A stretch of DNA of 64,000 nucleotides, from contig NZ_JAJNOD010000005.1 of NCBI RefSeq assembly GCF_021044885.1, positions 62,001-126,000 on the forward strand. The letters run 5' to 3'. The position numbers were made by a program, and so were the translations under genes. The number at the start of each line of letters is the position of its first letter. Positions within the stretch are counted from its first letter, which is position 1. Positions 48,209 to 54,646 of this stretch are shown here, one piece after another. A model generated the notes under the pieces. That model worked only from the letters and a program-made list of their open reading frames with translations. It was not told the origin of the DNA and searched no databases. This stretch comes from Microbacterium nymphoidis. GTDB taxonomy: Bacteria > Actinomycetota > Actinomycetes > Actinomycetales > Microbacteriaceae.

Positions 48209-49258
48209 ATGTCCCCCGAAGCGCCTCCGACAGCGCCCCGCGTCCTCGTGGTCGACGACGACCCGGACGTCGCCCTTCTGGTGAAAGTCCTGCTCGAACG
48301 CCGCGCCGGGGCGGAGGTCGAGGTCGCCACCAGTGGTGAATCCGCCCTGGCACGGGTGAGCGCCTTCCGCCCGGATCTGGTCGTCACGGACATCGAGATG
48401 CCCGGGCTCAGCGGCTTGGAGCTGCTGGCCGAACTGCGCCGACGCATGCCCGGCGTCCCGGTGGTGGTCATGACCGCGCACGTTTCGGTCGAGTACGCCG
48501 TCTCGGCGTTGCGCGCCCAGGCCGACGAGTTCCTCACCAAGCCGCTGGACAATGCGCGCCTGGTCGATGTCGTGCAGCGTCTCGCTGAGGAGGGTCGTGC
48601 GCGCCGCGGCCATCGCCGCCAGACCGTGCTGGCGGTGGGCGCCCACCCGGATGACGTGGAGATCGGCGTGGGCGGGATCCTCGACGCGCACGCCGCTGCC
48701 GGGGACGAGATCACCATCCTCACCCTGTCTCGCGGCTCGCGCGGCGGCAATGCCGACAGCAGACAGGGCGAGTCGCTGGCGGCCGCCGAGCTGCTCGGGG
48801 CGCGCCTGTTCCTCAAGGATCTGGTGGACACCGAGATCTCCGGCGGCGGGGCCACCGTCCGTCTCATCGAAGAGGTCGTCGCCGAGGTGCAGCCCACGGT
48901 CGTCTACACCCACAGCGTCCATGATCGCCACCAGGACCACCGTGCGGTGAGCGAGGCGACGACCGTCGCCACGCGGCGCGTCGGCACCGTCGCCTGCTAT
49001 CAGAGCCCTTCGGCCACGATCGAGTTCCACCCGACCCGCTTCGTGCGGATCGAGGACTACCTGGATCGCAAGCTCGAGCTCTTGGCGTGCTTCGGCTCGC
49101 AGACCGCGTCCCGCGACTATCTGGCGCCCGACTTCGTCACGGCCACGGCCCGGTACTGGTCGCGTTTCGGGGGCGGCTCCGCGGTGGAGCCGCTGGAGAT
49201 CCTCCGCGAGACCGCCGAATTCGTACGCGTGCACGCGTACGCCGAACAGGAGGCATGA
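48209..49258 (+). CDS. receiver domain fused to PIG-L deacetylase
   Basis: A 349-residue fusion. Residues 10-125 are a CheY-like receiver with a complete active site: DDD (16-18), phospho-acceptor Asp61 in VTDIEMPG, Thr89 and Lys111 in FLTKP. Residues 137-349 are a PIG-L (LmbE-like) zinc N-deacetylase: AHPDD (145-149), and HDRHQDH (238-244) supplies the third zinc ligand. PIG-L enzymes remove acetyl from GlcNAc-containing lipids or thiols. Here the activity is presumably controlled by phosphorylation, an unusual output. GGAG precedes the ATG. It heads a seven-gene overlapping operon that ends in a histidine kinase. Confidence 0.9.
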   Translation: MSPEAPPTAPRVLVVDDDPDVALLVKVLLERRAGAEVEVATSGESALARVSAFRPDLVVTDIEMPGLSGLELLAELRRRMPGVPVVVMTAHVSVEYAVSALRAQADEFLTKPLDNARLVDVVQRLAEEGRARRGHRRQTVLAVGAHPDDVEIGVGGILDAHAAAGDEITILTLSRGSRGGNADSRQGESLAAAELLGARLFLKDLVDTEISGGGATVRLIEEVVAEVQPTVVYTHSVHDRHQDHRAVSEATTVATRRVGTVACYQSPSATIEFHPTRFVRIEDYLDRKLELLACFGSQTASRDYLAPDFVTATARYWSRFGGGSAVEPLEILRETAEFVRVHAYAEQEA

Positions 49259-50244
49259 TGCCGATCCGCGTACTCGTGACAGGGGCCGGCGGCCCCGCCG
49301 GCGTCGCCGTCATCCGTTCCCTGCTCACGCGCACGGATGTCACGGTCTTCGCCGCCGACATGGACGGCTGGGCGAGCGGCATCTACCTCGTTCCCGCCCC
49401 GCAGCGGCGTCTGGTACCTCCGGGCGCGGACGCCGGCTTCGTCCCCGCCCTGGCACGACTGGTGCGCGAGGACCACCTCGACCTGGTGATCTCCACCGTC
49501 GACGTCGAGCTGATCGAGCTGGCGGATCGCCGTGGCGAGCTCGCACCCGCCATGCTGGCGGCACCGACGGCCGACACCCTCGCCTGCGCGCTGGACAAGC
49601 TCGCCCTGGCGCGTCGCTGCCAGCACACCGGGCTGGTGCCGCGCACCGAGCCCGTCGGCCCGGACGCCCTCGCGGTGGACTGGACCTTCCCGGTGTTCGC
49701 CAAGCCGCGCCGGGGAGCCGGCAGCCGCGGCATCCGCCTGGTCCCGGATCGCGCGGCCCTCGAAGCCCTGCCGGGTGACGCCGACCTCATCGTGCAGGAC
49801 TTCCTACCCGGCGACGAATACTCGGTGGACGTGATCGCCGATCACGACAGCCGTGTGGTGGCTGCAGTGCCGCGCACCCGCACACGGGTCGACTCCGGCG
49901 TGGCCATCGCCGGTCGCACCGTGCACGACCCTGAGCTGGAGGAGGCCGCAGCGCGCATCGCCGAGGCGATCGGGCTGGTGGGTGTCGCCAACGTGCAGCT
50001 GCGACGCGACCGCGACGGACGAGCGGTCCTGCTGGAGGTCAACCCCCGCTTCCCCGGAGCGCTGCCGCTCACGATCGCCGCAGGTGTGGACATCCCGTCC
50101 CTCGTGGTGGATCTGTTCACCGGCGTGGACCTCCCGGACCGCCTGCCGTTCCGGGAGCTCGCCACGGTGCGCTTCCTGGAGGACGTGATCCTCGATCCCG
50201 CAGAGCTGCTGGAATCGGACCACGCCGGACACCAGGACGACTGA
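49258..50244 (+). CDS. ATP-grasp enzyme (carbamoyl-phosphate-synthase-like)
   Basis: A 328-residue ATP-grasp protein: pre-ATP Rossmann start RVLVTGAGGPAGVAVIRSLL, ATP-binding strands with FAKPRRGAGSRGIRLV (about 140-155) and VQDFLPGDEYSVDVIAD, and the Mg2+ site LLEVNPRFPG. Similar to CarB-like/PylC carboxylate-amine ligases that join an acid to an amine. Two ATG codons in frame (49255, 49258); the second has AGGAGG at better spacing and overlaps the preceding stop by one base. It is in the deacetylase operon, so it may modify the freed amine, an inference. Confidence 0.88.
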   Translation: MPIRVLVTGAGGPAGVAVIRSLLTRTDVTVFAADMDGWASGIYLVPAPQRRLVPPGADAGFVPALARLVREDHLDLVISTVDVELIELADRRGELAPAMLAAPTADTLACALDKLALARRCQHTGLVPRTEPVGPDALAVDWTFPVFAKPRRGAGSRGIRLVPDRAALEALPGDADLIVQDFLPGDEYSVDVIADHDSRVVAAVPRTRTRVDSGVAIAGRTVHDPELEEAAARIAEAIGLVGVANVQLRRDRDGRAVLLEVNPRFPGALPLTIAAGVDIPSLVVDLFTGVDLPDRLPFRELATVRFLEDVILDPAELLESDHAGHQDD

Positions 50245-50957
50245 TGCTCGAGATCCTGCGCGGCGACCATCACGTGCACTCCACGTTCTCCGACGATGCC
50301 GTCTCCACGCCGGAGGAGAACGTCGCGGCCGCGCACACCGCAGGGCTCCGGGAAGTCCGCCTCGTCGATCACGTCCGCCGGAGCACGACGTGGGTTCCCG
50401 ACTACGTCCGGGCGATGCGTGCCCTCGCCGTTCCGGACGGGCTGAAGGTGCGCACCGGCGTCGAGGCGAAGATCCTCGATCGCGACGGGACGCTCGACAT
50501 CCCGCCACTGCCCGATGGCGTGGAGCGGATCCTGATCGCCGACCACCAGTTCCCCGCCGCGGAGGGTCCGCTCGGGCCGACCGAAGTGCGACGGCGCATC
50601 GATGCGGGATGGTCGATCGCCGATGTGCTGGACGACTACGTGGGTGCGCTCATCGCGGTGATGCAGCGCCACCCCGGCAACCAGCTCGCGCACTGCTTCT
50701 CGCTGCTTCCCAAGCTGGGCATCGAGGAGTCCGCCGTCGGTGAGGAGCGCCTCACCGCCTGGGCCGATGCCGCGCGGGCGACGGGCACCATCGTCGAGGT
50801 CAACGAGAAGTGGGCGTGCCCTGCCCCGGCCGCCCTCGCGGCAGCACGCCGCGCCGGTGTCGAGCTCGCGGCGGCCACCGACAGCCACACCGCCGGTGAC
50901 GTGGGACGGTACGCCCGAGTCCGCGACCTGCTCGACGCGCTCGGTGACCCGCTGTGA
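50244..50957 (+). CDS. PHP-domain metal-dependent hydrolase
   Basis: A 237-residue PHP protein: first metal ligands RGDHHVHSTFSDD (8-18), LVDHVRRS, Glu in RTGVEAKILD, ADHQFP, HCFSLLPK and the last cluster ATDSHTAGD near 217. All the expected His/Asp/Glu ligands are there. Related to histidinol-phosphate phosphatase and polymerase-type PHP domains; phosphatase activity on a sugar or nucleotide is likely. TGATG overlap with the ATP-grasp gene, GTGA overlap with the next. Confidence 0.87.
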   Translation: MLEILRGDHHVHSTFSDDAVSTPEENVAAAHTAGLREVRLVDHVRRSTTWVPDYVRAMRALAVPDGLKVRTGVEAKILDRDGTLDIPPLPDGVERILIADHQFPAAEGPLGPTEVRRRIDAGWSIADVLDDYVGALIAVMQRHPGNQLAHCFSLLPKLGIEESAVGEERLTAWADAARATGTIVEVNEKWACPAPAALAAARRAGVELAAATDSHTAGDVGRYARVRDLLDALGDPL

Positions 50958-52435
50958 ACGGTTTCGACGTCGCGCTCATCGTGGTGCTGCTGGTGTGCGT
51001 GTTCCTGGGCACGATTCCGGTGCTGTCTTCGGCTTACCAGTTCCTGCTGCTCCCGCTGCACGCGGTGCGCAACCACTACGGCAGAGCACGTCCGCACACC
51101 CCGCGGGTCGCCGTGGTGATCCCGGCGTGGAACGAGGGGCTGGTGATCGGCTCGTCGATCGACCGCCTCCTCACCCTGGACTACCCGGAGGACCTGCTAC
51201 GCATCTTCGTCGTGGACGATGCCTCCACGGACGACACCCCGGCCGTGGTGCGCGAGCGCGCCGCACGCCATCCCGGCCGCGTGGTGCACCTGCGGCGCGA
51301 GGTGGGCGGCGAAGGCAAGGCCCACACCCTGAACCATGGGATCGGCCGGATCCTGGCGGACGACTGGGCCGACGCCGTGCTGATCATGGACGCCGACGTG
51401 ATCTTCGCGCACGACTCGCTGCGCAAGATGGCACGTCACCTGGCGGACGAGCGCGTCGGCGCTGTCACCGCCTACATCGCGGAGGGCAGCGCGGATCGCA
51501 ACTATCTGACGCGCTTCATCGCGATCGAGTACGTGATCTCCCAGCTGGCCGCACGACGCACGCAGAACGTGCAGGGAGCCATCGCGTGCCTCGCCGGAGG
51601 CGCTCAGCTGCACTCACGGGCCAACCTCGAGGCGATCGGCGGACGCATCCCCACGGGCACCCTCGCCGAGGACACCATGACCACCTTCGAAGGCCAGCTT
51701 CACGGGCGGCGCATGGTGTTCGAACCGCACGCGGTGGTGCTCGCGGAGGAGCCGCGGACGATCGATGCCCTGTGGAAGCAACGGCTGCGCTGGGCGCGCG
51801 GCAACGTGCAGCTCACCTCGATCTACAAGCGTCTGTGGTTCCGTCCCAGCCGCGAACACCGCCTCGGCAGCCTCTCATTCGGACTGGTCTGGTTCAGCAT
51901 CCTGCTGCTGCCGGCGTTCATGCTGCTGGCATCCGCCGCCCTCCTCGTGCTGCTGATGCTGCACAGCGACATCGCTGAGGCGGCGTTTCGCTACATGTGG
52001 ATCTTCACGGCGTGCGTCTACATCTATCTGATCGTCTTCTCCGTGCAGCTGGACCCCCGGATCGGATGGCACTCGTGGCGAGAAGCGATCCTGTTCCCGG
52101 GCATCGGCGCGGTGCTTCTCATGCTCGCGGCGCTCTTCCCGAACCTGCCCGAGTTCGTCGCGCAGACGGTGTTCGGGGTGACGCTGGGCCATCAGGGCCA
52201 GATCACCCTCCTCGTGATCTTCTATCTCTGGGGACCGGTGTCGATGCTGGGAGCGTGGGTGGCGCGCTTCGCCGAGCGGCTGCCCGGTGGCCGCTTCCTC
52301 GCCGGCCTCATGCTGTACGTGTTCGGCTATGGCTCGCTCCTGTGCGCCATCACCGTCGATTCGTACATCAAGGAATGGCGGCGCGCGGACGCGTCGTGGG
52401 TCAAGACCGAGAAGGTCGGAAGGGTCGCCTCATGA
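50954..52435 (+). CDS. processive GT2 glycosyltransferase (membrane synthase)
   Basis: A 493-residue membrane synthase of family GT2 with the cellulose/hyaluronan synthase layout: one N-terminal transmembrane helix, GT-A domain with VVIPAWNEG and FVVDDASTDDT, DxD in IMDADVIF, TED-like base in GTLAEDTMTT, the processive motif QRLRW, then five or so helices at the C-terminus. Such enzymes polymerise and export a beta-linked glycan from UDP-sugars (NodC, PgaC, HasA). With a deacetylase in the operon, GlcNAc is a candidate monomer. GTG start overlaps the PHP stop (GTGA). Confidence 0.9.
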   Translation: MNGFDVALIVVLLVCVFLGTIPVLSSAYQFLLLPLHAVRNHYGRARPHTPRVAVVIPAWNEGLVIGSSIDRLLTLDYPEDLLRIFVVDDASTDDTPAVVRERAARHPGRVVHLRREVGGEGKAHTLNHGIGRILADDWADAVLIMDADVIFAHDSLRKMARHLADERVGAVTAYIAEGSADRNYLTRFIAIEYVISQLAARRTQNVQGAIACLAGGAQLHSRANLEAIGGRIPTGTLAEDTMTTFEGQLHGRRMVFEPHAVVLAEEPRTIDALWKQRLRWARGNVQLTSIYKRLWFRPSREHRLGSLSFGLVWFSILLLPAFMLLASAALLVLLMLHSDIAEAAFRYMWIFTACVYIYLIVFSVQLDPRIGWHSWREAILFPGIGAVLLMLAALFPNLPEFVAQTVFGVTLGHQGQITLLVIFYLWGPVSMLGAWVARFAERLPGGRFLAGLMLYVFGYGSLLCAITVDSYIKEWRRADASWVKTEKVGRVAS

Positions 52436-52581
52436 GCGCACACTCGCCCCGGGACGCGGAGAGGGACGCGCGGGACATCGCCCGTGACGCCCGCCGCGAG
52501 CGGCTGCTGATTCCGCAGGCGCTCATCGCCCTGATCGTCGTGGCGGCCGTGGTCGTCCTGCGCGAACTGCTGCTGCGATGA
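52432..52581 (+). CDS. 49-residue single-pass membrane protein in signalling operon
   Basis: Polar, strongly charged N-terminus rich in Arg/Asp (DAERDARDIARDARRERLL) and one C-terminal transmembrane helix (ALIALIVVAAVVVLRELLLR at the end). The heptad-like charge pattern could form a short coiled coil. It overlaps both neighbours by four bases (ATGA twice), so it is a genuine co-translated part. Could anchor or regulate the GT2 synthase, or couple to the kinase. No family recognised. Confidence 0.7.
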   Translation: MSAHSPRDAERDARDIARDARRERLLIPQALIALIVVAAVVVLRELLLR

Positions 52582-52925
52582 TCTCGCGACCGCTTGCTCT
52601 CGTGGTCGAAGACAGCGAGGACCAGGTGGAGCTGCTCCGGCGCTACCTGGGTCGTGAGGGCTTCGACACCTTCGCCGCCTTGGACGCGGAGGCGGCCATC
52701 GCCGCGCTGGATGACATCTGCCCGCAACTGGCGATCATCGATCTGCTGCTGCCGGGCATCTCCGGCGCGGAGTGCGCGCTCCGCGTGCGCGAACGTCACC
52801 CCGACTGCCGCCTGGTCATCAGCTCGGTGCTCGACGAGGCCGACTACCCCGCGGCTGACGCAGCGCTCCCGAAGCCGGTGCGAGGATCGGAATTCCACGA
52901 CATGATGCAGCGGATGTACCCGTGA
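52578..52925 (+). CDS. stand-alone receiver protein (CheY-like)
   Basis: A 115-residue receiver with no output domain: acidic pair VVEDSED (10-15), phospho-acceptor Asp55 in IIDLLLPG, Ser at VISSV and Lys in LPKPV. It probably shuttles phosphate between the kinase at 52922 and the receiver of the deacetylase fusion, or tunes one of them; a phosphorelay within one operon. Overlaps the small gene and the kinase gene by four bases each. Confidence 0.9.
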   Translation: MISRPLALVVEDSEDQVELLRRYLGREGFDTFAALDAEAAIAALDDICPQLAIIDLLLPGISGAECALRVRERHPDCRLVISSVLDEADYPAADAALPKPVRGSEFHDMMQRMYP

Positions 52926-54646
52926 GCGGCACCCGCTCCGACCGCGCCCGCGTGCGCTGGTATGGCGTGATCGACGATCCGAACCCGCTCGTCAAGCAGC
53001 TCCCCACCATCGGGGCGGTCCTCGTCGCGCTGCTGCTGGTGCTGTCGATCCCCGGAATCGAGTTCAGCAACGCGCTGCTGGCGCTGATCGGGGTCGGCGT
53101 CGTGGCGGTGGCCACTGCGGGGGCCGCCGTGCTCAGCCGGCGCAGCGTGTCCGACGGGTGGTGGGTGCTCGCGATCCCGATGGTGGACATCCTCGCCATC
53201 GGCCTGTTCCGCGCCGGCACTGGCGGGACGACGTCCCTGTTCGGATCGCTCGTGCTCCTGCCCGTCGTGTGGCTGGCTGCCACTCCGGGGCGTCGTCACG
53301 TCTACATCGTCGCGGTGCTCACCTCCATCGCCCTCCTCATGCCCTACTTCGCGTCGCCGCCGAGCAACACGGTGGACTGGCTGCGCGGTGTGATCTCCCC
53401 CCTGGTCTTCGCGGCCGTCGCCGCAGTCGTCAACGAGCTGTCGCGCCAGCAGCGCCGGCAACTGCGCCGATCGGAGCGTCTGGTCACCGAGCGCACCCGC
53501 GCCCTGCGGGAGAACCAGGAGATCGTGCTGCGGCTGCGCGAATCGGAGCAGCGCTATCGAGGTCTCCTGGACTCCTACCAGAGCCTGTGGGCATCCATCA
53601 CCGCCCAGGCGATGATCGCCACCGACCCCGAGGGAATCGTGGTCTCGTGGAACCCCGGCGCGCGCCGCCTGCTGGGCCACACCGAAGAGGAGGCGCTCGA
53701 CGGGGTGAGCATCGAGCGGTTCTTCCCGGCGGGGTCGCTCGGGGGTTTCACGGGCATCGCCTCGGAGTCTCCTGTGACGGCGCTGTTCGCGATGGTCGAT
53801 GCGGGTGCGGAGGTTGACGGCGACATCGACGCGATCACCGCGAGCGGCTCGGTGTTCCCGGCCCGCCTCACCGCCACGCCGCGTCGCGATGGAGCCGGCC
53901 GGCACATCGGGTACCTCCTCGTGCTCAGCGATGAGACCCGCACCGCCGAGATCGCGCGGATGAAGGACGAGTTCGTCGGAATGATCTCGCACGAGCTGCG
54001 CACCCCGTTGAGCTCGATCGTCGGATTCCTGGACCTCCTGCAGACCGACCCGGCAAGCCCGCTCACCGACGAGCAGCTCGGATTCGTGGAGGTGATCGAG
54101 CGCAACGCGCAGCGGCTGCTCAAGCTGGTCGGGGATCTGCTGTTCACCGCTCAGGTGGAATCCGGGCGGTTCCCCGTCGAGCGCACCAGCATCGACCTGG
54201 GAAGCGTGGTCCGCTCCGCGGTCGCGTCCGCAGGTCCGCAGGCCGTGCGCGACGGCATCGAGCTGCACTCGGACGTGCCGGACGAGCCGGTGATCATCTC
54301 CGGTGACGCGGGGCGCCTCGGACAGGCGGTCGACAATCTGCTCTCCAACGCGCTGAAGTTCACGCGCGCGGGCGGGTCGGTGACCGTTGAGGTCGACTCC
54401 GACGCCGAAGCCACGGTGGTGCGTGTGCGCGACACCGGCATGGGCATCCCGCTCGACGAGCAGAAGAAGCTGTTCACCCGGTTCTTCCGCGCCTCCACGG
54501 CCACCCGCAACGCGGTTCCCGGTGTCGGGCTCGGGCTCACGATCACGCGCGCGATCGTGCTGGCCCACGGCGGCGAGATGAGCGTGACGAGCGAGGAGGG
54601 CGTCGGCACCGAGTTCCGCATCCGTCTTCCCCGCACGTCCCGCTGA
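52922..54646 (+). CDS. membrane PAS sensor histidine kinase
   Basis: A 574-residue kinase: five or six transmembrane helices (about 27-170), a coiled linker, PAS domain (about 220-340, MIATDPEGIVVSWNPGARRL), HisKA with His357 in MISHELRTPLSSIVGFLDLL, and HATPase_c with N box NLLSNALKFTRAGG, G1 DTGMGIPL and G2 GVGLGLTITRA. The membrane part suggests sensing in the membrane or outside. GTG start overlaps the receiver stop. It ends the operon, so it is coexpressed with both receivers. Confidence 0.93.
   Translation: MSGTRSDRARVRWYGVIDDPNPLVKQLPTIGAVLVALLLVLSIPGIEFSNALLALIGVGVVAVATAGAAVLSRRSVSDGWWVLAIPMVDILAIGLFRAGTGGTTSLFGSLVLLPVVWLAATPGRRHVYIVAVLTSIALLMPYFASPPSNTVDWLRGVISPLVFAAVAAVVNELSRQQRRQLRRSERLVTERTRALRENQEIVLRLRESEQRYRGLLDSYQSLWASITAQAMIATDPEGIVVSWNPGARRLLGHTEEEALDGVSIERFFPAGSLGGFTGIASESPVTALFAMVDAGAEVDGDIDAITASGSVFPARLTATPRRDGAGRHIGYLLVLSDETRTAEIARMKDEFVGMISHELRTPLSSIVGFLDLLQTDPASPLTDEQLGFVEVIERNAQRLLKLVGDLLFTAQVESGRFPVERTSIDLGSVVRSAVASAGPQAVRDGIELHSDVPDEPVIISGDAGRLGQAVDNLLSNALKFTRAGGSVTVEVDSDAEATVVRVRDTGMGIPLDEQKKLFTRFFRASTATRNAVPGVGLGLTITRAIVLAHGGEMSVTSEEGVGTEFRIRLPRTSR

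What the first reader, a model, noticed from the sequence alone, without database searches (positions are those of the whole stretch)
48209..54646. Seven-gene phospho-regulated surface-glycan operon with a receiver-PIG-L deacetylase
Seen: seven genes each overlap the next by 1-4 bases: receiver-PIG-L fusion, ATP-grasp, PHP hydrolase, processive GT2, 49-residue membrane protein, lone receiver, PAS kinase. All catalytic residues I could check are intact. Known: GT2 synthases (PgaC/NodC type) make GlcNAc polymers, PIG-L removes acetyl groups, ATP-grasp ligases join acids to amines, kinases phosphorylate receivers. Inference: the kinase senses a membrane or surface signal, passes phosphate via the lone receiver to the fused receiver, and so switches a deacetylase acting on the polymer or its precursor; the ATP-grasp enzyme then decorates the amine. 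A receiver whose output is a PIG-L enzyme instead of DNA binding is rare, and I know of no description of this set.
Basis: partly seen in the sequence, partly recalled or inferred. Interest (0 to 1): 0.85.

Follow-up and report, generated by a model that had tools for sequence, protein, structure and literature searches.

The report
Receiver-deacetylase glycan operon of actinobacteria
Many actinobacteria share a set of genes that seems to build and chemically modify a sugar-based envelope molecule, with a signalling switch fused directly onto the modifying enzyme instead of onto a DNA-binding protein.

Summary
The seven genes, overlaps and domains are as described. The operon is widespread, not a one-off. 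In 108 non-identical loci the core is [receiver]-PIG-L, ATP-grasp, PHP, GT2 and a one-helix membrane protein; 101 of 107 PIG-L genes carry an intact receiver. Named hosts include Microbacterium, Leifsonia, Leucobacter, Cellulomonas, Janibacter and Blastococcus. PHP and GT2 hit exactly the same 20 of 396 genomes of the order. Ten of eleven Leifsonia loci lack GT2 in the operon; 9 of 9 such genomes searched hold it elsewhere. One locus carries PIG-L and ATP-grasp of an exosortase-linked glycan cluster type, so these two probably act in sequence.

Correction: the kinase's constant partner is the fused receiver. Ten of 96 kinase-bearing loci have no lone receiver beside them, so relay through it is not the general mechanism.

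Best reading: a two-component-gated pathway to an N-modified amino-sugar envelope glycan or glycolipid, switched at the enzyme. Product, substrates and phosphotransfer are inferred. Seven paper searches found no description. New variant of a known kind.

The parts
48209..49258 (+). Receiver (residues about 12-122) fused to PIG-L de-N-acetylase (about 139-330); phospho-acceptor Asp61, catalytic AHPDDxE and HQDH
   Evidence: AlphaFold2 mean pLDDT 90, pTM 0.71
49255..50244 (+). ATP-grasp ligase or carboxylase, CPS-like (PRK12767 / ATPgrasp_Ter); start at 49255 or 49258
   Evidence: AlphaFold2 mean pLDDT 93, nearest fold 2pn1
50244..50957 (+). PHP-domain metallohydrolase, YcdX/HisJ-like; a discrete subfamily that marks this operon
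50954..52435 (+). Membrane GT2 glycosyltransferase with DxD and QxxRW, best score to PgaC/IcaA
52432..52581 (+). 49-residue protein with one hydrophobic helix; conserved EI..DRR.ER-like segment before the helix
52578..52925 (+). Lone receiver (Asp55, Lys99); optional in the family
52922..54646 (+). Membrane PAS histidine kinase, His357

Best explanation
A pathway for an N-modified amino-sugar glycoconjugate of the cell envelope (exopolysaccharide most likely, glycolipid next), controlled by a two-component system at the enzyme itself. Shown: a co-inherited core of PIG-L, ATP-grasp, PHP, GT2 and a one-helix protein, most members with an intact receiver on the PIG-L and a kinase gene beside it. 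Inferred: (1) the GT2 builds an N-acetylhexosamine glycan from the cytosolic face; (2) PIG-L, which begins with a receiver and so should be cytosolic, removes N-acetyl groups from the precursor, nascent chain or lipid-linked sugar; (3) the ATP-grasp enzyme modifies the freed amine with an acyl, aminoacyl or carboxyl group; (4) PHP hydrolyses a phosphoester of an intermediate; (5) the kinase phosphorylates Asp61 of the fused receiver, changing PIG-L activity or its docking at the membrane, perhaps to the one-helix protein; (6) lone receivers, where present, are a second output or a phosphate sink. My estimates: one linked pathway 0.95; kinase acts on the fused receiver 0.8; PIG-L then ATP-grasp 0.7; polymer product 0.5; whole chain as written about 0.4.
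For: Linkage: PHP profile and GT2 profile each hit exactly the same 20 of 396 order genomes; GT2 in 38 of 247 genus genomes; core order kept in 108 non-identical loci, with the variants listed. Detachment: 10 Leifsonia loci lack GT2 in the operon, and all 9 of these genomes searched hold one elsewhere. Catalytic residues: PIG-L H146/D148/D149/E151 in 105 of 105 readable, PHP ligands H10/H12/H43/E74/H101/H150/D213/H215 in 108 of 108, GT2 QxxRW in 98 of 98, kinase His in 96 of 96. Control: receiver with D, T and K in 101 of 107 (2 cut by contig ends, 1 absent, 3 degenerate); a same-strand kinase gene nearby in 95 of those 101 and in 0 of the 4 without an intact receiver. Minimal pair: 10 of 96 kinase-bearing loci have kinase and fused receiver only. 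PIG-L/ATP-grasp pair: in L041 both group with an exosortase-cluster clade (support 100/99 and 100/100) while GT2 groups with the main family (100/100) (identities). Glycan context: best GT2 score is PgaC/IcaA over 10-369; relatives of a camelysin/TasA-type and a SipW-type gene nearby in 13 of 108 loci, a GGDEF/EAL gene beside them in the one locus scanned; PIG-L fold nearest BC1534, BshB and diacetylchitobiose deacetylases.
Against: GT2 is far below the PNAG-synthase cut-off (125 against 422 bits) and also aligns with HpnI over 13-340, so coverage does not decide between polymer and lipid; QxxRW also occurs in non-processive relatives (recalled). No export, flippase or sugar-nucleotide domain among the seven proteins, and the solitary Leifsonia GT2 has no glycan neighbours that I recognise in the four contexts read. 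The one-helix protein stays with PHP when GT2 leaves, which weakens the idea of a synthase subunit. ATP-grasp folds nearest include biotin carboxylase and PurK, so amide formation is not established. The TasA/SipW neighbours are essentially one clade, plus a SipW-like gene in one Blastococcus locus. Six loci with an intact receiver have no same-strand kinase nearby (L071, L072, L086, L171, L175, L177; L072 and L171 are cut by contig ends, L086 has one on the other strand). The L041 trees carry long-branch warnings, and the PIG-L difference there is modest: 53% and 184 bits to L043 against 47% and 163 bits to the window. Distance correlation did not single out kinase and fused receiver: partial r 0.20, against 0.29 for kinase and lone receiver. 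pTM 0.71 leaves the domain arrangement open.
Confidence: 0.5

Rival explanations
1. Glycolipid route: the GT2 is not processive but puts a GlcNAc-type sugar on a membrane lipid (as HpnI does on hopanoids); PIG-L de-N-acetylates it at the inner leaflet and the ATP-grasp enzyme acylates or carboxylates the amine. The switch tunes membrane charge.
For: PIG-L proteins include GlcNAc-PI de-N-acetylases (name of PF02585). GT2 also scores HpnI 58 bits, HpnB 71 and Glyco_transf_21 60. No polymer export or processing domain among the seven proteins; a cytosolic PIG-L can reach the inner leaflet.
Against: PgaC/IcaA scores twice HpnI (125 against 58 bits), with similar coverage; biofilm-type neighbours in the Cellulomonas-type loci; the sister PIG-L/ATP-grasp cluster carries exosortase and WecB.
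Confidence: 0.22
2. Soluble small-molecule route, by analogy with mycothiol or bacillithiol (glycosyltransferase, phosphatase, PIG-L deacetylase, ATP-dependent ligase): the PHP enzyme would be the phosphatase.
For: Same order of chemical steps (recalled pathways); best deacetylase hit of the PIG-L part in NCBIfam is BshB1 (87 bits); GT2 also hits MftF of mycofactocin (82 bits).
Against: BshB1 is far below its cut-off (87 against 182.5); the GT is a multi-pass membrane GT2, not a soluble GT4 (MshA and BshA are GT4, recalled); patchy distribution, 20 of 396, within an order whose members make mycothiol anyway (recalled).
Confidence: 0.1
3. The receiver mainly regulates location or stability, not catalysis: phosphorylation docks or releases the PIG-L enzyme at the membrane complex.
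For: Domain arrangement is weakly determined (pTM 0.71); a one-helix protein with a charged segment before the helix follows GT2 (or PHP in Leifsonia) in 105 of 106 loci examined.
Against: None direct; not testable here.
Confidence: 0.15
4. One reading: kinase to lone receiver to fused receiver.
For: A lone receiver gene lies before the kinase gene in the window and in the other loci of the same gene order (53 of 108 in all).
Against: Ten of 96 kinase-bearing loci have none beside them, five have only the other type, and the ten GT2-less Leifsonia loci only that type; direct receiver-to-receiver transfer is not known to me; no HPt hit among the seven proteins. The distance correlation is slightly higher for kinase and lone receiver (0.29 against 0.20), which does not exclude it here.
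Confidence: 0.05

Closest known systems
Receiver fused to a BcsA-like glycosyltransferase in Methanobacteriaceae (MTH_548), and receivers fused to metabolic enzymes in general (PMC5847659, section on enzymatic output domains read; Galperin 2006 and 2010 cited there, not held)
   Same: Two-component control placed on a glycan or metabolic enzyme itself, without DNA binding
   Different: There the glycosyltransferase carries the receiver and the paper found it only in three genera of one archaeal family; here the de-N-acetylase carries it, inside a conserved multi-gene set across several actinobacterial families
PgaC/IcaA (PNAG) synthase systems with PgaB/IcaB deacetylase and PgaD/IcaD (system composition recalled)
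   Same: PgaC-like GT2, small membrane protein, a de-N-acetylase
   Different: GT2 is below the equivalog cut-off; the deacetylase is a receiver-bearing PIG-L, not an exported CE4 enzyme (CE4: recalled); ATP-grasp and PHP added; the small protein has no family hit
Exosortase-linked cluster PIG-L / GT2 / exosortase(-ATP-grasp) / WecB seen here in G049 and G852 and, without WecB in view, in G812
   Same: Homologous PIG-L, ATP-grasp and a PgaC-like GT2; L041 has PIG-L and ATP-grasp of this type in an operon of the present family
   Different: No match to this operon's receiver, PHP or kinase proteins in L043, L203 or L205; exosortase and UDP-GlcNAc 2-epimerase instead
Mycothiol / bacillithiol biosynthesis (MshA-B-C, BshA-B-C; recalled)
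   Same: Glycosyl transfer, PIG-L deacetylation, ATP-dependent ligation
   Different: Soluble GT4 and small-molecule product (recalled); BshB1 model not met

Membership tests
PIG-L / LmbE de-N-acetylase (PF02585) | Pfam score over cut-off with AHPDDxE and HxDH metal site | tested here: met
   84.3 bits against 28.2; H146/D148/D149/E151 in 105 of 105 readable and H241/D243/H244 in 107 of 107
Two-component response regulator | Receiver fold with acidic pocket, phospho-Asp, Thr/Ser and Lys | tested here: met
   110 bits; D17, D61, T89, K111; fold hits to receivers
Two-component response regulator | Phosphorylated by a histidine kinase | not testable with these tools
   Only gene proximity: same-strand kinase gene near 95 of 101 intact fused receivers
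PgaC/IcaA poly-GlcNAc synthase (TIGR03937) | Equivalog cut-off 422 bits | tested here: not met
   125 bits
QxxRW membrane GT2 (BcsA/HAS/PgaC type) | D, DxD, D and QxxRW motifs | tested here: met
   97 of 98 (one gap) for the first D, 98 of 98 for the others
QxxRW membrane GT2 (BcsA/HAS/PgaC type) | C-terminal membrane helices | not tested
   Hydrophobic stretches read from the sequence by eye; no predictor was run
QxxRW membrane GT2 (BcsA/HAS/PgaC type) | Processive polymer synthesis | not testable with these tools
   Needs an enzyme assay
BshB1 bacillithiol deacetylase (TIGR04001) | Equivalog cut-off 182.5 bits | tested here: not met
   87.1 bits
PRK12767 carbamoyl-phosphate-synthase-like ATP-grasp | Equivalog cut-offs 218 to 390 bits | tested here: not met
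   Best 144 against 390 and 137 against 218; fold match 2pn1
PHP metallohydrolase (PF02811) | Metal ligands HxH, H, E, H, H, DxH | tested here: met
   108 of 108; 42.5 bits against 26.4
Exosortase-linked glycan cluster | Exosortase gene in the cluster | tested here: inconclusive
   No exosortase listed for the seven operon proteins (lists of proteins 1, 6 and 7 are capped at 25); flanks not scanned for it

The most novel reading that the evidence does not exclude
A bacterial envelope-glycan pathway in which a cytosolic de-N-acetylase, the step that creates the amine to be decorated, is itself the response regulator, so that charge or decoration of the glycan can be changed within seconds without new transcription; the pathway uses an ATP-grasp enzyme to put a new group on that amine, giving a class of N-modified glycan not yet described.
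Probability: 0.4. Interest if true: 0.8.

Novelty: new variant of a known kind. Interest (0 to 1): 0.66.

Why it matters
If right, these bacteria control the chemistry of their envelope glycan after translation, through phosphorylation of the modifying enzyme, unlike the usual two-component control of transcription. The named scan found 168 stretches that encode a relative of the PHP marker, the best 80 of which include strains of Microbacterium, Leifsonia and Cellulomonas, so it can be tested directly. It also gives four orphan enzymes (PIG-L, ATP-grasp, PHP, GT2) a shared pathway, which narrows the search for their substrates.

Tried and rejected
Rejected: the fusion is a private oddity of this genome (101 of 107 PIG-L genes have an intact receiver). 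Rejected as a general mechanism: relay through the lone receiver. Rejected as membership: PNAG synthase, BshB1, PRK12767. Inconclusive: distance-matrix correlation to pair kinase with a receiver, on 66 loci; raw values 0.93 to 0.98 for every kinase pair tested, so all genes share one history. Inconclusive: domain arrangement of the receiver-PIG-L model (pTM 0.71). Led nowhere: paper searches for the gene set. The papers opened were PMC1183210 (passages) and PMC5847659 (passages and one section); all others were seen only in search listings. In one search the L043 rows for ATP-grasp and GT2 were taken in a wrong frame (ATP-grasp row left out by the program, GT2 row 11% filled); the result rests on L203 and L205 (and L204 for ATP-grasp), and correct-frame pairwise identities are. 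The program also warned of long branches meeting in the PIG-L and ATP-grasp trees. One search stopped on an N base after 11 of 13 loci; the gene lists of the other two (L087, L089) were not printed later, but both are in the counts. A first ORF picker gave wrong antisense genes in L041 and was replaced. Dropped before counts: 10 of 118 loci as identical PHP copies; L106 and L135 from the small-gene and overlap counts (broken genes); L099 has no PIG-L because its contig ends.
Full report
OBSERVATION. The window is G000:C5:62001-126000 of a 3.77 Mb genome in 12 contigs. Three genomes labelled 'same genus' have contigs whose lengths equal those of named records (774412, M. algeriense; 489075, M. 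oxydans NBRC 15586; 1176301, Microbacterium sp. 1.5R), so the genus is Microbacterium (inferred). The seven genes, their coordinates and their 1 to 4 nt overlaps are as stated and Pfam confirms every named domain. The 49-residue protein has no family match. The neighbours are a divergent M13 peptidase gene and a MatE transporter gene.

DISTRIBUTION. A search of 58 relatives gave seven matches that span receiver and PIG-L, all in the same genus; the long tail of weaker matches is not fully listed. The GT2 occurs in 38 of 247 genus genomes at E 1e-60. A PHP profile gave 20 of 396 order genomes in 12 of 109 genera, and 3 of 396 phylum genomes (own included); the weakest hit has 222 bits and nothing lies between it and the E 1e-18 threshold: a discrete marker. 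A GT2 profile on the same 396 order genomes hit exactly the same 20. A scan of named genomes found 300 pattern stretches, 168 encoding a relative, of which the best 80 are kept: Microbacterium, Leifsonia, Leucobacter, Okibacterium, Pseudoclavibacter, Agromyces, Agrococcus, Mycetocola, Salinibacterium, Glaciihabitans, Cellulomonas, Sanguibacter, Janibacter, Blastococcus and others.

ANATOMY ACROSS LOCI. The window, 37 unnamed and 80 named loci gave 118, of which 108 differ in PHP sequence. Gene order in the 108, by tblastn: 53 like the window; 10 with two lone receivers; 10 with kinase but no lone receiver (checked in gene lists); 10 without GT2 in the operon, all named Leifsonia (an eleventh Leifsonia locus, L115, keeps it); 5 with only a second type of lone receiver; the other 20 are variants, including kinase genes upstream, tandem receiver-PIG-L copies, contig-cut loci and loci without a kinase. 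A start codon giving a 1 or 4 nt overlap joins PIG-L to ATP-grasp in 87 of 95, ATP-grasp to PHP in 87 of 96 and PHP to GT2 in 89 of 96. A 43 to 92 residue gene with one hydrophobic helix follows in 105 of 106; the one miss, L081, has a 59-residue gene there that fell under my hydropathy threshold. In all 105 a Glu is invariant in a DRR.ER-like segment before the helix.

RESIDUES. Receiver D61, T89 and K111 all intact in 101 of 107 PIG-L genes; two are cut by contig ends (L159, L164), one has no receiver (L041), three have a degenerate receiver without the Lys (L083, L084, L085; no Pfam receiver hit for the two scanned, L083 and L085). PIG-L H146, D148, D149, E151 in 105 of 105 readable; H241, D243, H244 in 107 of 107. 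Kinase His in 96 of 96. PHP ligands in 108 of 108. GT2 DxD and QxxRW in 98 of 98. ATP-grasp K150, R152, E188, E261, N263 and R265 in 108 of 108. A same-strand kinase gene lies nearby in 95 of 101 loci with an intact fused receiver and in none of the 4 without one. These four are at most a few independent events (tree), so I read this as suggestive only.

TWO NATURAL EXPERIMENTS. First, ten Leifsonia loci lack GT2 between PHP and the one-helix gene, yet each of the 9 such genomes searched whole has one GT2 of this family elsewhere, at 796 to 809 bits (the tenth, L126, was not searched). The four contexts read show, by eye, housekeeping neighbours and no glycan genes that I recognise (two more were fetched and not read). 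So the link between GT2 and the rest is functional and not a by-product of adjacency. Second, in L041 the PIG-L and ATP-grasp proteins group with an exosortase-associated clade (support 100/99 and 100/100) while its GT2 groups with this family (100/100) (midpoint-rooted, with long-branch warnings). Identities agree: ATP-grasp 47% and 254 bits to L043 against 38% and 130 bits to the window; GT2 50% and 453 bits to the window against 36% and 124 bits to L043; PIG-L less sharply, 53% and 184 bits against 47% and 163 bits. So the two seem to have been exchanged as a pair, which is what consecutive enzymes would do. The sister cluster is PIG-L, PgaC-like GT2, exosortase, ATP-grasp and WecB. A search with its ATP-grasp matched 4 of 246 phylum genomes: two hold the cluster (one contig ends before WecB), one shows only the ATP-grasp gene, one is an operon of the present family (family hits).

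WHAT THE ENZYMES RESEMBLE. PIG-L: fold nearest BC1534, BshB, TT1542 and diacetylchitobiose deacetylases. ATP-grasp: nearest 2pn1 (CPS-like, no tested function known to me), then biotin carboxylases, PurK and the L-amino acid ligase YwfE; amide ligation and bicarbonate activation are both possible. PHP: nearest YcdX, polymerase X PHP domains and histidinol phosphatases. GT2: NCBIfam ranks PgaC/IcaA first at 125 bits over residues 10-369, below its 422-bit cut-off, then MftF, EpsU, NodC, HpnB, CelA, the XrtG- and XrtP-associated transferases and HpnI; nearest solved structures are the family-2 glycosyltransferase 6yv7 and BcsA. In 13 of 108 loci relatives of a camelysin/TasA-type gene and of a SipW-type peptidase gene lie near (7 named Cellulomonas, 6 unnamed); in L079, the one scanned for families, a GGDEF/EAL protein lies beside them. 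One Blastococcus locus has a SipW-like gene. This points to biofilm matrix but weakly.

MECHANISM. I infer: GT2 makes an amino-sugar glycan at the membrane; cytosolic PIG-L removes acetyl groups from a precursor, nascent chain or lipid-linked form; the ATP-grasp enzyme modifies the amine; PHP cleaves a phosphoester; the membrane PAS kinase sets the activity or docking of PIG-L through Asp61. The lone receiver is not a required relay in the family. Shown here are co-inheritance, residues, architecture and the paired exchange; not shown are any activity, phosphotransfer or product.

KNOWN AND NEW. Receivers fused to metabolic enzymes are known, and a receiver-BcsA-like fusion is reported for Methanobacteriaceae (PMC5847659, section read). 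I found no description of a receiver-PIG-L protein or of this gene set in searches; the two Galperin reviews most likely to list it are not held, so an earlier listing of the fusion cannot be excluded. I file it as a new variant of a known kind.

Noticed in passing
L043:10041-15590 (G049), L203 (G852), L205 (G812): Sister glycan cluster without a detected receiver: PIG-L, PgaC-like GT2, exosortase (fused to ATP-grasp in L043), WecB; no paper found.
   Followed up: partly
L041:8229-12174 (G038): Chimeric operon: PIG-L and ATP-grasp of the exosortase-type clade, PHP and GT2 of the present family, no receiver and no kinase.
   Followed up: yes
L144:14767-15762 (Agrococcus jejuensis): A second, degenerate receiver-PIG-L gene (36% identity over the PIG-L part) just after the kinase; both domains score below the Pfam cut-offs.
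   Followed up: partly
L112:6826-7848 and L156:6847-7824: Tandem second receiver-PIG-L gene directly upstream of the operon.
   Followed up: no
L106 and L135 (Leucobacter coleopterorum, L. komagatae): GT2 (and in L106 the kinase) split over frames; sequencing error or real decay, not resolved.
   Followed up: no
L193-L196 (Leifsonia genomes): The family GT2 stands alone; a gene that reads like purL (by eye) lies near in three of the four contexts read.
   Followed up: partly
L079:12792-16571; relatives in 12 other loci: Camelysin/TasA-type protein and SipW-type signal peptidase beside the operon; in L079 also a GGDEF/EAL protein.
   Followed up: partly
L113:13078-13884 and 21 other loci: A nitrilase-family gene (deaminated glutathione amidase type, below that model's cut-off) near the operon in 22 of 108 loci; probably plain synteny.
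   Followed up: no
G536:C1:2492501-2493958: A second family GT2 (790 bits) in a genome whose operon already has one.
   Followed up: no
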